Positions 34,542 through 39,159 of a stretch of DNA of 64,000 bases are shown one piece after another (the stretch's first letter is position 1; each line of letters starts with the position of its first letter). The DNA is from Sanghuangporus weigelae (Eukaryota; Basidiomycota; Agaricomycetes; Hymenochaetales; Hymenochaetaceae). The notes under the pieces were generated by a model, which worked only from the letters and a program-made list of their open reading frames with translations, was not told where the DNA came from and did no database searches. Position numbers and translations under genes: made by a program. The DNA is taken from NCBI GenBank assembly GCA_033182465.1, contig CP137321.1, positions 1,116,001 through 1,180,000 on the forward strand. Reading direction: 5' to 3'.

Positions 34542-37500
34542 ATGTCCCGCCACCGTGCCGTTAGAAACATGAATATCCAGGGTACTACTTCGAATATGCA
34601 TACACCAACCACATACTGATTCTCACTGCTTTAGAGGAGCTAGATGACGATGCATATTATGACGAAGAGGAATTAGACTTTCAATTGACACCAGAGCAAT
34701 ATGGTGCGTTGCCGTTTCAGCCGCATTGTTGCTACGCTGTACCGATGACCATGATGTATTAGATCAACTTGACGAAGTAAGGGAGCAAGTCGTCGAAGCA
34801 ATTGGATATCCGTCCGTTAGCGGTATCCCTGAGGAGTCGTTAAATGAAATCATAATATACAATGATTTCGACGTTGAGAAGACCTTAAAGTATATCGAAG
34901 GTATGCAGTTTGCTGCAGAACCGGTGCTTCTTTCCCTAACTTGCTTGTAGACGAGATGGAACGCATGGCAATAGCAAATGAACGGAAAGGTGAGCCCCGA
35001 ATCCTAGCTTATATTGTCTCGGATTTCTTCTTCTCTGCGGCTGCCGTGCAATCTCTGTCATGAATAACCTCATGAAACACGGCACATCGTGTTTGGAGTG
35101 CGAAGGTGCTTGTCATCTTCTTACTGTCGTTGCGCCACACTCTTCTGCGATTCCTTCGCTAATGCGTTGGTCTTCGGATAGAACCTGCTGTGCCTAGCCG
35201 ACTCTCGACTATTTCTGAAAGAACCGAGAAGACCGAGAGGACTCGTGCAAGTCACCAGAGTGGAGCATGGCCTTCCCGCCATGAACTTCTTGCTGTTCGC
35301 CGCCCTCCTTCGACCCCAACTCCAACGACAAGCTCGTATGGGCAAGTCCTGCACCCATCCGCGAGCACTTTCGGACTCAAACAGAGATCTTTGGAGGATG
35401 TTGAAGCGCGTTCGGTGGTTACTGCTACGTCTGATGATTACGGTCAAGTCATAGGCAAGTTTACATCGTGTTTTTTTTCTTCTTTATAGATACTAATTTC
35501 CAACTCTCATGATAGAAAATGAACGAACAGTCGATCCGAACGACATTCATCCGTCGCCATCGCTTTCGGCCATTCGCCATCTTGAGATAAGGACTCCGAG
35601 CCCGTCACCTAGCCGCTCTGTTTCTACAGTTCAAGCTCCGCCCCAGCAGAAAAATTACCAAGCATCCGGCGGTGCACTCCGGGGTCATGGGATCAGATCA
35701 TCCTCATCAATCAGCTCTCTCTCTGCCCTTCGTCAAAGCCCCCAAGCGGTAACCGAACGTAGCCTTCCCAAGACTCCACGGTCCGAACGTAGCCAAACCG
35801 GACCTGCTGTCTCCCACGCTTCGTCCATAGACCCGTTATCAGAGAAGGAAGTCAGTCCAAAAAAATCAAAACTTGCATCCCTGGCTAGCTTGCGAAAGTC
35901 TGAGGCAGCGCCCAGCCAGTCATCCATGTCCTGCACGACGACCGATACTCTTGACACTGTCGCGACTTTTCCAGCGCTTCGTCCTAGATCTCTTACCTCT
36001 CATACATCGGTTTCTATCGCTGCACCAGATCGCAAGGATGATAGGGTGGTGACGCCGAGCCTGGACCAGCAGAGGGAGAAACTGAAGATGATGAGGGCAG
36101 TCAGAGAACCCTTTGCGTTGCCAATCCCACCGCCTCATGCGCCTTCGACTCCTACTCGTTCTGAAGCGCCATCATTGAAGTCGATACCCTCCGAAGCTCA
36201 ATCAACCTCGAGGGCAAGACGATCCGAGTTGGCGACTGGTGTAACGACGACTGAAGAACCGGCACCATTTGAGAACGAGCCCATTGTAACTGAAAAGCCG
36301 ACGTCGGTCGTGGAGAAACCAACGATGTCCAAGTTGGCCCAGTTGGCTCAAGCGAAGGCGGCCAACCGGGAGCATACCAGCCGAAAGATTCAGAAACCTC
36401 GGATCCTTGACCCTCCATTTGCCGAGACAAAGTACTTGAAGCCTGCATATAACAATTCCTCTATGACCACCGCTATTACGACGTATACACAGACCGTAGA
36501 TAACATGGTCGCTATGTCTCGTGCAGACCTGCCGCCATCTTACCCTCTGAAAGGCAAACAGTCGAAGCTAGCGCTTAAGGCGAAGGACTCGGGAAACAAG
36601 CCTGCTTCATCTACTGCAGACGATGCACAGCGCGAGGCTCTCGAGCGAGCACGTAGTCACGCGCAGAATTTGCTTTATAACGGGAACGTATCACGAGTGG
36701 AACCATCCTCATTTGCTTCCCTCCTCGTCAATGATCGCGATCACATAAAACAGCCAAAGGCGGAAGAAAGCGAATTTTCGCGGAAACAGAAAGCAGAACA
36801 GAAAGCGGAGCGGAAGGCAGAGGAACGCTTGCGTCGAAGAATGCGCAAGGAAGCTTTGCTTCCTATGCACTTGCTGAACCCTTCCGTGTTGAAGTCGACG
36901 GCATTTGCATTTGATGTCCCGAGTCCCGACGATGTTGTGCTTAACTCACGTAAAGGAACAGCGTTAGACGCTGCGAGGCACGCTAGGTCACGGCACAAGG
37001 ATACTCCTGATCATTCTTCGGTACCACCAATTCGATGACAGTTATCTGACGTTGCATTGCTTTAACTTATTTATTTTGGCGTTTCATTTATTCCTTGTTG
37101 TATTTTTTGTTATTGATTTGCATTGGTCTCGGTTTTCTTGGACAATCTTGATGCTGACTACTTTTCAAAGCCGCCCGCGAACGCGAAAAAGCAGAGAAGG
37201 CGAAAAATAAACAATTACAGAGCCTAAAGTCCGGGGCGTCCTCTGCCTCAACGTCTCGCACAGCCTCGCGTGTTCCTTCTCCTACAAAAACGTCAACAAA
37301 ACAAACCGGGAGCAAGAAGACTGCAGCTTCATCAAAACCACCTCAGTACAGATCTCCGTTAGATCAGCAAGCGATGGATATATCATCTCTGCGTCTCGAT
37401 TCTGATGATGTCGAAGAGCCAGTTAATGAACCTCCGCCCAAGATTTCTATAGCCCGTGAGAAGGTTCTTGAAGAAGCTCGCAAGTCATTGAACGCAAATA

Positions 37501-39159
37501 CAAAGAAAGATGTCAGCCTTGTCGTCATTGGTAAATACTCTTTTTGCACTATATTAGTGCGTTCTAAGCTTTATATTTGTAGGACACGTCGACGCAGGAA
37601 AGTCCACTTTAATGGGCAGGTTACTTTATGAACTTGGGCTGTTAGACGAGCGAAAGAGGCTCGGGAACGAGCGTGAAAGCAACAGAATGGGCAAGGGGAG
37701 TTTTACATGGGCTTGGGAGATGGATGGAACGATTGAAGAACGAGAGAGGTAAGCATTTCCTTCGAAGGACGTCACAGTTTACTCATCAGTATATCAGAGG
37801 AGTGACCATGGATATTGCACAACAAATGCTAGGGACACCGAATAGACACATTACGGTTCTGGATGCTCCCGGGCACAAGGACTTTATACCTAATATGATC
37901 TCGGGAGCTACCCAAGCGGATTCCGCCCTTCTTGTCGTCGATGCTGCAACTGGGGAGTTCGAGGCGGGATTTGACCGTGGAGGGCAAACTCGAGAGCACC
38001 TTGTGCTTGTTCGTAGTCTTGGTGTGACTCAGGTCATTGTGGCCGTCAATAAACTGGATCAAGTAAGTAGTCTTTGCCAAAGTATCTTATCGTATGCTTA
38101 TCTTCGTTCCTAGGTTAACTGGGATAGAGACCGCTATGAAGAGATTTGTGACCTGCTCAGACCATTCCTCACGCAAACGGGATTCAACGCCTCGAGAGTA
38201 GGCTTCGTTCCGGTGGGCGCTCTGAGTGGTGTGAATCTAGCTCACCGAGACGGCGACGAGTCTAATACTCTGAACAGTTGGTACAAAGGTCCAACACTCG
38301 TTGATTTGCTGGGTGAGACTAACAGATGCATTGTGTCTGAAAGAATCCTGGCTGACCTCAAAAAAAAAAATCTTACAGATAAGCTTGAACCTCCAGCTCG
38401 GGCGCTCATGGCACCTCTGCGCTTCCCGATTTCAAATGTTTTCAAAGGGACGTCTTCCAGTGGAATGGGTGTCTCGGGAAGACTATGTAGCGGCGTTGTT
38501 CAAGTAGGGGAGCAACTGCGTATCCTTCCTGGAGACGAGACAGCCGTCGTGAAATGTAAGAGTAACTGGTGCAATCTACTACAATGGCTTTTTATTGATT
38601 GCTTGTCACAGCTATCGAGGTTGATGAAGAAAGCAAACCATGGGCAGCTGCAGGATCGAACGCTACATTATACCTCACCAACGTTGACCCGATACATCTA
38701 AGCATCGGCTCGGTCCTATGCCCTCCGTCGGACTTAGTGCCCTTAACAACTTCTTTCACGGCCCGCGTCATCATTTTCGACATCGAGTTGCCTATAACCA
38801 TCGGTGCTTCCGTAGAGTTGTTCCATCACTCATACAACGTACCTGCAAGTGTGGCAGCGATTAGCGCGACGTTAGACCGCGGAACAGGTGCGGTGGTGAA
38901 ACGCAATCCAAGAGTGCTCACTCGCGGTGCCTCAGCAGAGATTCGTATCACACTACGCACGTCGAGCATGTCGGGCCCCACTGCTCGTGCGCAAGCCATT
39001 CCGCTCGAGCCATTCTCAATGAATAAGGAGATGGGACGGTTCCTCCTCCGTCGCGGTGGTGAGACAATAGCAGCGGGTACGAATTGATCTTCCTCATTTT
39101 TTCTCTCATAAGTCTAACTTCTCTGCCCAGGCATCGTTCTTGACGTCGCTCCGAAATAA
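34542..39159 (+). CDS. HBS1: Hbs1 ribosome-rescue GTPase (long-splice product of HBS1/SKI7 locus)
   Basis: With Dom34/Pelota, Hbs1 splits stalled ribosomes in no-go and non-stop decay. Shared exons are 34542-34581, 34635-34703, 34763-34900, 34951-34989 and 35182-35454. They encode [13 protein letters not shown], an acidic stretch and the HBS1 N-terminal domain ([44 protein letters not shown]). For Hbs1, 35454 joins to 37171 ([15 protein letters not shown]). The eEF1A-like GTPase follows: [18 protein letters not shown] (G1), [10 protein letters not shown] (G2), [12 protein letters not shown] (G3), NKLD (G4), then beta-barrel domains 2 and 3 ([26 protein letters not shown], then [36 protein letters not shown]). 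Stop TAA at 39157-39159. All G motifs are intact. The transcript must skip the 35516-37038 exon, which carries its own stop. Confidence 0.92.
35516..37038 (+). CDS. Alternative terminal exon encoding a Ski7-like tail
   Basis: An uninterrupted open exon with acceptor AG at 35514-35515 and a TACTAAT branch site at 35491-35497. Joined to the shared 186-codon HBS1 N-terminus (559 nt, phase 1) it gives a 693-residue protein with no GTPase domain, ending at TGA 37036-37038. The exon encodes a Ser/Pro/Arg-rich disordered region, then conserved-looking blocks: [42 protein letters not shown] (about 36,390-36,460), [33 protein letters not shown] (FxxxL motif, about 36,690) and a highly charged helix ([24 protein letters not shown]) before [26 protein letters not shown]. 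It fits Ski7-like splice forms known from other fungi and from human HBS1L, which bridge the Ski complex and the cytoplasmic exosome. Transcript usage is inferred, not observed. Confidence 0.82.

What the first reader, a model, noticed from the sequence alone, without database searches (positions are those of the whole stretch)
34542..39159. One locus appears to encode both Hbs1 and a Ski7-like protein through mutually exclusive 3' exons
Seen: five shared exons (559 nt, ending phase 1 at 35454) can join in frame either to a 1,523-nt exon with its own stop (35516-37038) or to the GTPase exons from 37171. The first product would be 693 aa without a GTPase domain, the second a full Hbs1. Known: Hbs1/Ski7 pairs made by alternative splicing occur in some fungi and for human HBS1L. 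Inference: this fungus uses one gene to supply both ribosome rescue and the Ski-exosome bridge. The ratio would set the balance between the two decay routes.
Basis: partly seen in the sequence, partly recalled or inferred. Interest (0 to 1): 0.75.

Follow-up and report, generated by a model that had tools for sequence, protein, structure and literature searches.

The report
Two-in-one HBS1/SKI7 gene in mushroom
One gene of a wood-rotting fungus can be spliced into either of two proteins, one that rescues stuck ribosomes and one that hands their messenger RNA to the cell's shredder; this arrangement is already known from other fungi and from humans.

Summary
The 513-codon frame is not chance, and its product is a conserved Ski7-like protein with exosome-docking motifs S1 and S3. 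I found no second SKI7 or HBS1 in the genome. The core interpretation stands but is not new: Marshall et al. 2013 described it for Basidiomycota, with EST support in Cryptococcus and Ustilago.

One correction. The Hbs1 form very probably skips exon 5 as well: 10 of 12 annotated Hbs1-type relatives join the exon-4 residues straight to the GTPase exon, and none carries exon-5 motifs. That makes four shared exons and a 648-aa Hbs1. Exon 5 ends at a GC splice donor and belongs to Ski7.

Comparison also bears on a point Marshall left open. In 56 of 57 GTPase-free relatives the frame ends 15-51 residues after S3, behind conserved residues; fused Ski7-Hbs1 gene models disagree about the junction and look like prediction artefacts. 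No RNA data from this species were available, so expression and the isoform ratio are untested.

The parts
34542..34581 (+). exon 1, shared (start codon)
34635..34703 (+). exon 2, shared, HBS1_N
34763..34900 (+). exon 3, shared, HBS1_N; the only HBS1_N match in the genome
34951..34989 (+). exon 4, shared; its GT donor (AAG|GTGAGC) is the proposed branching point
35182..35454 (+). exon 5, 273 nt, probably Ski7 form only; ends at a GC donor behind the YGQVI codons
35455..35515 (+). GC-AG intron between exon 5 and the Ski7 exon
35516..37038 (+). Ski7 terminal exon with its own stop (TGA)
36700..36735 (+). codons of motif S1 ([12 protein letters not shown])
36904..36939 (+). codons of motif S3, Patch-4-like ([12 protein letters not shown])
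36943..37035 (+). codons behind S3 (NSRKGTAL... to the last residue); the first eight are conserved
37039..37170 (+). 132 nt, 50% T, between the Ski7 stop and the distal acceptor; must hold the inferred Ski7 mRNA end and the distal splice signals
   Evidence: mRNA end inferred
37171..37530 (+). first Hbs1-only exon (linker and start of GTPase)
37583..39159 (+). remaining Hbs1 exons 37583-37748, 37798-38062, 38114-38312, 38379-38555, 38612-39076, 39131-39159 with their introns; stop TAA

Best explanation
This is the single HBS1/SKI7 gene of a basidiomycete close to Sanghuangporus baumii. Exons 1-4 carry the HBS1_N domain and are shared (frame and homology shown). From the exon-4 donor at 34989 the pre-mRNA takes one of two routes. 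Route 1 splices to 35182, then over the GC-AG intron to 35516, and the transcript ends soon after the stop at 37038; it makes a 693-aa Ski7 that ties the Ski complex to the exosome through S1, S3 and the stretch behind S3. Route 2 splices to 37171 and makes a 648-aa Hbs1 GTPase that works with Dom34/Pelota in ribosome rescue. The choice is probably a competition between the proximal acceptor with 3'-end formation and splicing to the distal acceptor. The two products are shown as open, conserved frames; that both mRNAs are made here, what the products bind, and how the choice is set are inferred.
For: Gene model and frames; chance of the open frame about 2e-10. Pfam: HBS1_N in both products, GTPase domains only in the Hbs1 product. 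Ski7 form: of the 70 distinct proteins lack the motif GHVDAGKST and 57 of 57 have SPDD; 56 of 57 end 15-51 residues after SPDD, 20 of 57 exactly 15 after. P0002 (727 aa, HBS1_N, YGQVI, S1, S3) lies on a 2,382-nt contig, which leaves 198 nt besides the frame, against 415 nt for the five introns of the window's gene: probably a spliced Ski7 mRNA with its own stop. Hbs1 form: 10 of 12 Hbs1-type models join the exon-4 residues to the GTPase exon, 0 of 12 carry exon 5. Fused models: 32 seen, of which 9 lose S3, 12 keep S3 but not the usual pattern behind it, 11 keep both; the window's fusion donor (after 36949) scores below each of the ten gene donors, and 1,622 of 3,622 GT sites of the window score as high or higher. 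Single gene: one HBS1_N, one Ski7 C-terminus (next match E = 1.97), one Hbs1 C-terminal domain (next match 31% identity). Partners: Ski2_N, pelota, below the family cut-off, EXOSC1/Csl4. Precedent: PMC3597508.
Against: No RNA or protein data from this species. The relatives are mostly gene models whose transcript support I could not see. The PDB match of the S1-S3 stretch to human SKI7 is weak alone (E = 4.6) and two unrelated chains rank above it. P0102 joins differently and P0178 is ambiguous at the exon-4 junction. Third-position GC does not single out the Ski7 frame. No AATAAA lies between 37039 and 37170. A Ski3 family search found nothing, but also rang in no control genome. The donor scores rest on ten introns of this gene.
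Confidence: 0.85

Rival explanations
1. Five shared exons: the Hbs1 form keeps exon 5 and splices from the GC donor at 35454 to 37171 (739 aa).
For: The join is in frame. The GC donor scores well: 8.35 bits without position +2, matched by 11 of 3,622 GT sites of the window.
Against: 0 of 12 Hbs1-type relatives carry exon-5 motifs and 10 of 12 join exon 4 straight to the GTPase exon. Cryptococcus skips exons 4 and 5 together (PMC3597508).
Confidence: 0.1
2. The Ski7 exon is a cassette, not a terminal exon: it is spliced from about 36949 to 37171, giving one fused Ski7-Hbs1 protein of 1,217 aa besides Hbs1.
For: The S. baumii model P0001 is such a fusion with the corresponding junction; the join is in frame in the window; 32 fused models exist; ascomycete long forms keep the GTPase (PMC3597508).
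Against: The residues lost by that splice are conserved in the GTPase-free relatives; fused models disagree on the junction; the donor is weak; P0002 is probably a spliced message that ends at its own stop.
Confidence: 0.08
3. Two separate neighbouring genes: a Ski7 gene ending at 37038 and a GTPase gene with its own start downstream.
For: At least 11 species have both models on a contig of the same length, one pair with consecutive tags (C0991_003047 and C0991_003048).
Against: Hbs1-type models that join HBS1_N to the GTPase exist in 12 listed hits, one probably a spliced message; only 132 nt lie between the two parts; ESTs join them in Cryptococcus and Ustilago (PMC3597508).
Confidence: 0.05

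Closest known systems
SKI7/HBS1 of Cryptococcus neoformans and Ustilago maydis (Marshall et al. 2013, PMC3597508)
   Same: Single gene; exons skipped to make Hbs1 (two of them in Cryptococcus); a truncated Ski7-like product without GTPase proposed.
   Different: The authors left the Ski7 mechanism open; the conserved stop and tail in Agaricomycetes favour the terminal exon. I saw no GC donor mentioned in the parts that I read (parts 1-3 of 7 and passages).
Human HBS1L / HBS1L3 (SKI7)
   Same: Shared N-terminal part, distinct C-terminal part without GTPase in the Ski7 form, SPDD motif near the end (632 residues); S1 and S3 align in order; Marshall et al. report ESTs with exon 5 as last exon.
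   Different: Little overall sequence similarity; binding shown experimentally only in human (PMC11540850).
Lachancea kluyveri SKI7/HBS1
   Same: One gene, two proteins, each complementing one yeast mutant (PMC3597508).
   Different: Both forms keep the GTPase; the choice is between two 3' splice sites of one intron.
Saccharomyces cerevisiae SKI7 and HBS1
   Same: The same two functions.
   Different: Two genes after genome duplication; Ski7 keeps a GTPase-like domain (PMC3597508).

Membership tests
alternatively spliced HBS1/SKI7 gene | one locus with HBS1_N and an Hbs1-type translational GTPase | tested here: met
alternatively spliced HBS1/SKI7 gene | alternative in-frame sequence with Ski7 motifs S1 and S3 | tested here: met
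   match to human SKI7 weak
alternatively spliced HBS1/SKI7 gene | no separate SKI7 gene in the genome | tested here: met
alternatively spliced HBS1/SKI7 gene | both mRNAs are made in the organism | not testable with these tools
   no RNA data; only two probable spliced contigs of relatives, P0002 and P0089
alternatively spliced HBS1/SKI7 gene | the products do Ski7 and Hbs1 work | not testable with these tools
   needs complementation or binding assays
terminal-exon (truncated) Ski7 subtype as in human HBS1L3 | Ski7 form ends shortly after S3 and lacks the GTPase | tested here: met
   the window's frame ends 34 residues after SPDD; 56 of 57 GTPase-free relatives end 15-51 after

The most novel reading that the evidence does not exclude
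In many Agaricomycetes the stretch that codes for the exosome-docking motif S1 is itself an optional in-frame intron (an exitron) inside the Ski7 exon, so that a third form is made: a Ski7 without its RRP43/MTR3 anchor, a possible decoy or off switch for the Ski-exosome bridge. Basis: S1 is missing from 16 of 52 full-length GTPase-free models, while eight other conserved blocks of the same exon are missing from 0 of 52 (one of the eight, S3, could not be missing because the set was chosen by it). In the window a 57-nt in-frame GT-AG spans S1 (36697-36753), but its donor is poor and 252 of 464 control segments are spanned likewise, so the claim is for the wider group rather than for this species.
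Probability: 0.12. Interest if true: 0.6.

Novelty: new member of a known kind. Interest (0 to 1): 0.33.

Why it matters
It adds a clear case near Sanghuangporus to what Marshall et al. [quoted passage not shown] Across Agaricomycetes it gives protein-level evidence for an answer they left open in 2013: the Ski7 form ends in its own exon and does not carry the GTPase. It also shows that public databases often annotate this locus as two genes or as one fused protein, which matters to anyone counting HBS1 or SKI7 genes in mushrooms. The corrected exon set tells experimenters which junctions to assay.

Tried and rejected
Chance open frame: rejected. GT donor after 35442 in place of the GC donor: the S. 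baumii model appears to use it (..DDY then ENERT), but it scores lowest of the sites tested (-6.1) and would cut out residues 183-186, of which G is kept in 48 of 52 and I in 38 of 52 relatives. A PDB search with the whole Ski7 product gave an Hbs1 N-terminus at E 0.089 and three chains of no relation; profile A1 (24 of the 57 GTPase-free set plus window, 23 relatives used) gave only Hbs1 N-termini; only a short S1-S3 profile (10 relatives and the window) showed human SKI7, at E 4.6, behind two unrelated chains at E 0.72 and 0.78. A Ski3 search with PF18833 found nothing, in the controls neither. Exitron in the window: not above chance. Poly(A) signals in 37039-37170: of the strings tried only TATTTA, TGTA and TTTGTT, no AATAAA: inconclusive. 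GC3 did not set the Ski7 frame apart from the other two frames (0.51 against 0.56 and 0.53). A literature search for exitrons in fungi listed nothing on this gene. No structure prediction was run.

Selection to keep in mind: 'GTPase-free' means no GHVDAGKST and with SPDD; conservation counts use the 52 of 57 with at least 560 aa. One search scored only the 7,990 candidates sharing most words, and one search listed the best 120 of 4,980 hits, so 'Hbs1-type' means 12 of those 120. Motif blocks and regular expressions were chosen after seeing the alignment. The same-contig pairs were matched by eye from species name and contig length.
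Full report
WHAT WAS CHECKED. The window lies in a 33.87-Mb, 13-contig genome. The closest protein found is from Sanghuangporus baumii, 93% identical over 96% of the Ski7 product, so the host is a wood-decay basidiomycete of or near that genus (inference). The open frame of the long exon spans 513 codons; a Markov simulation gave 0 of 20,000 stop-free stretches and a computed chance near 2e-10.

WHAT THE TWO PRODUCTS ARE. Pfam finds HBS1_N in both, and the EF-Tu-type GTPase domains only in the second. 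The first is a Ski7-like protein. Two protein searches returned 70 distinct proteins; 13 contain the GTPase motif GHVDAGKST and 57 do not. All 57 have the S3 core SPDD. Behind it stands the pattern [RK][RK]G[TS] in 52 of 57, and RQGT, RHGT or RRDT in the other five. The frame ends 15-51 residues after SPDD in 56 of 57, exactly 15 in 20; the outlier is P0017 with 174. An alignment of the 52 full-length members shows conserved blocks along exon 5 and the Ski7 exon, among the strongest SKLALLAQAK, the TTAITT block and S3. A profile of the S1-S3 stretch (11 sequences) aligns in order to the human SKI7 chain of the exosome supercomplex (9g8m_E): PSAFAS against S1 and FDFKSASPDDIV against S3. The E-value is only 4.6 and two unrelated chains rank above it, so order and position carry this, not the score. 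In the human complex residues 555-572 bind the RRP43-MTR3 cleft, 602-616 bind CSL4, and 617-632 just behind form a helix that touches SKI2 (PMC11540850, passages). That the fungal S1, S3 and the stretch behind S3 correspond to these is my inference from the chain and construct lengths.

HOW MANY SHARED EXONS. Exon 4 ends in phase 1 and exon 5 is 273 nt, so a five-exon and a four-exon form are both in frame. Among the 120 listed hits, twelve are Hbs1-type (HBS1_N and GTPase, 589-662 aa). In 10 of 12 the residues of exon 4 (ERK and close variants) run straight into the GTPase exon; P0102 joins differently and P0178 is ambiguous. None of the 12 has the exon-5 motifs LSTI.E or YG. P0089 lies on a contig of 1,987 nt with a frame of 628 aa, which leaves 100 nt; in the window the same product needs ten introns, so P0089 is most likely a spliced message (the tool does not explain the source label). 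P0002 likewise is a Ski7-type protein of 727 aa on a 2,382-nt contig, leaving 198 nt, against 415 nt for the five introns of the window's Ski7 form. I conclude that four exons are shared and that the window's Hbs1 is 648 aa. This agrees with Cryptococcus, where ESTs show exons 4 and 5 skipped together (PMC3597508).

THE GC DONOR. Exon 5 ends TAG|GCAAGT. Without position +2 it scores 8.35 bits against a matrix of the ten GT donors of the gene; those ten, each left out in turn, score 0.2 to 7.3. This is a rough scale: ten donors only, and the left-out scores carry a penalty that the GC site does not. Only 8 of 3,750 GC sites of the window, itself probably included, score as high. The in-frame GT alternative after 35442, found by reading the sequence, scores -6.1. 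It would cut out residues 183-186 (GQVI), of which G is kept in 48 of 52 and I in 38 of 52 relatives, so the GC site is favoured. GC-AG makes up about 1.0% of fungal introns (PMC7072748, table seen in passages), so this is unusual but ordinary.

FUSION OR TERMINAL EXON. Marshall et al. wrote that it is 'not entirely clear' how basidiomycetes make the Ski7-like protein (PMC3597508, parts 1-3 of 7 read, and passages). Thirty-two fused models are in my set of 180 proteins. Nine lack S3, twelve keep S3 but not the usual pattern behind it (P0144 and P0174 show variants), and eleven keep both. The GTPase-free set is uniform by contrast. In the window the fusion donor scores -3.1, and 1,622 of 3,622 GT sites score as high or higher. 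This favours the terminal exon. Against it: the closest relative, P0001, is a fused model with just this junction, and both sets come from gene models, so bias by annotation pipelines cannot be excluded.

ONE GENE OR MORE. The own genome has one HBS1_N match, one match to the Ski7 C-terminus with the next at E = 1.97, and one Hbs1 C-terminal domain with the next match 31% identical at E = 7e-5, probably a related translation GTPase. Ski2_N has one match at the same locus as one of two DSHCT loci. Pelota matches in two exons of one locus, below the family cut-off, next to one of two eRF1_3 loci. EXOSC1 has one match. PF18833 for Ski3 gave nothing here or in any control. That these are Ski2 beside Mtr4 and Dom34 beside eRF1 is recalled knowledge.

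MECHANISM. Shown: both frames, the conserved motifs, a single gene as far as searched. Inferred: the exon-4 donor chooses between the acceptor before 35182 (192-nt intron) and the one before 37171 (2,181-nt intron). The 132 nt between the Ski7 stop and the distal acceptor are 50% T and would have to hold both the Ski7 mRNA end and the distal splice signals, so the two outcomes probably compete there. Of the poly(A)-like strings tried, TATTTA, TGTA and TTTGTT occur there, AATAAA does not. Nothing here tests the ratio or its regulation.

WHAT IS KNOWN. The dual gene is established in Ascomycota and Basidiomycota (PMC3597508), in plants (PMC6143672, passages) and in human (PMC11540850, passages; also the abstract of PMC13232801, on ubiquitin binding by the shared N-terminal domain). 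Three library searches on Ski7 or HBS1L listed no paper whose title or shown abstract is about this splicing in Agaricomycetes; the library holds open-licence papers only. The finding is a new member of a known kind, with a corrected exon structure.

A SIDE RESULT. Sixteen of 52 full-length Ski7-type models lack the S1 block. Eight other blocks of the same exon are missing in 0 of 52 (S3 by selection), and three upstream blocks in 1, 1 and 2 of 52. Congeners differ: S1 is present in the model of Suillus paluster and absent from those of S. variegatus, S. americanus and S. discolor. Either the gene finders favour a donor-like string in front of S1, or the stretch is a real optional intron in these fungi. 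In the window the candidate is not above chance, and S. baumii has Ala where the window has the GT-bearing Val codon.

Noticed in passing
window 36697-36753 and Ski7-type relatives: The S1 docking motif is missing from 16 of 52 annotated Ski7-type relatives while neighbouring blocks of the same exon are not, as if an optional in-frame intron covered it. In the window the candidate is not above chance.
   Followed up: partly
window 35455-35456: GC splice donor (TAG|GCAAGT) at the end of exon 5; gene finders that allow only GT would miss it, as the S. baumii model seems to have done.
   Followed up: yes
G000:C4:1093643-1094565, about 56 kb upstream of the gene, outside the window: A pelota/Dom34 gene, whose product is the partner of Hbs1, matches on the same contig. 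Whether this linkage is more than chance was not tested.
   Followed up: no
   Followed up: partly
window 34990-35181: Intron 4 is 192 nt, against 49-66 nt for the other short introns of the gene. Several relatives have about 40 extra residues at this place, so a lost or unrecognised exon piece is possible; none was seen by eye in the frames.
   Followed up: partly
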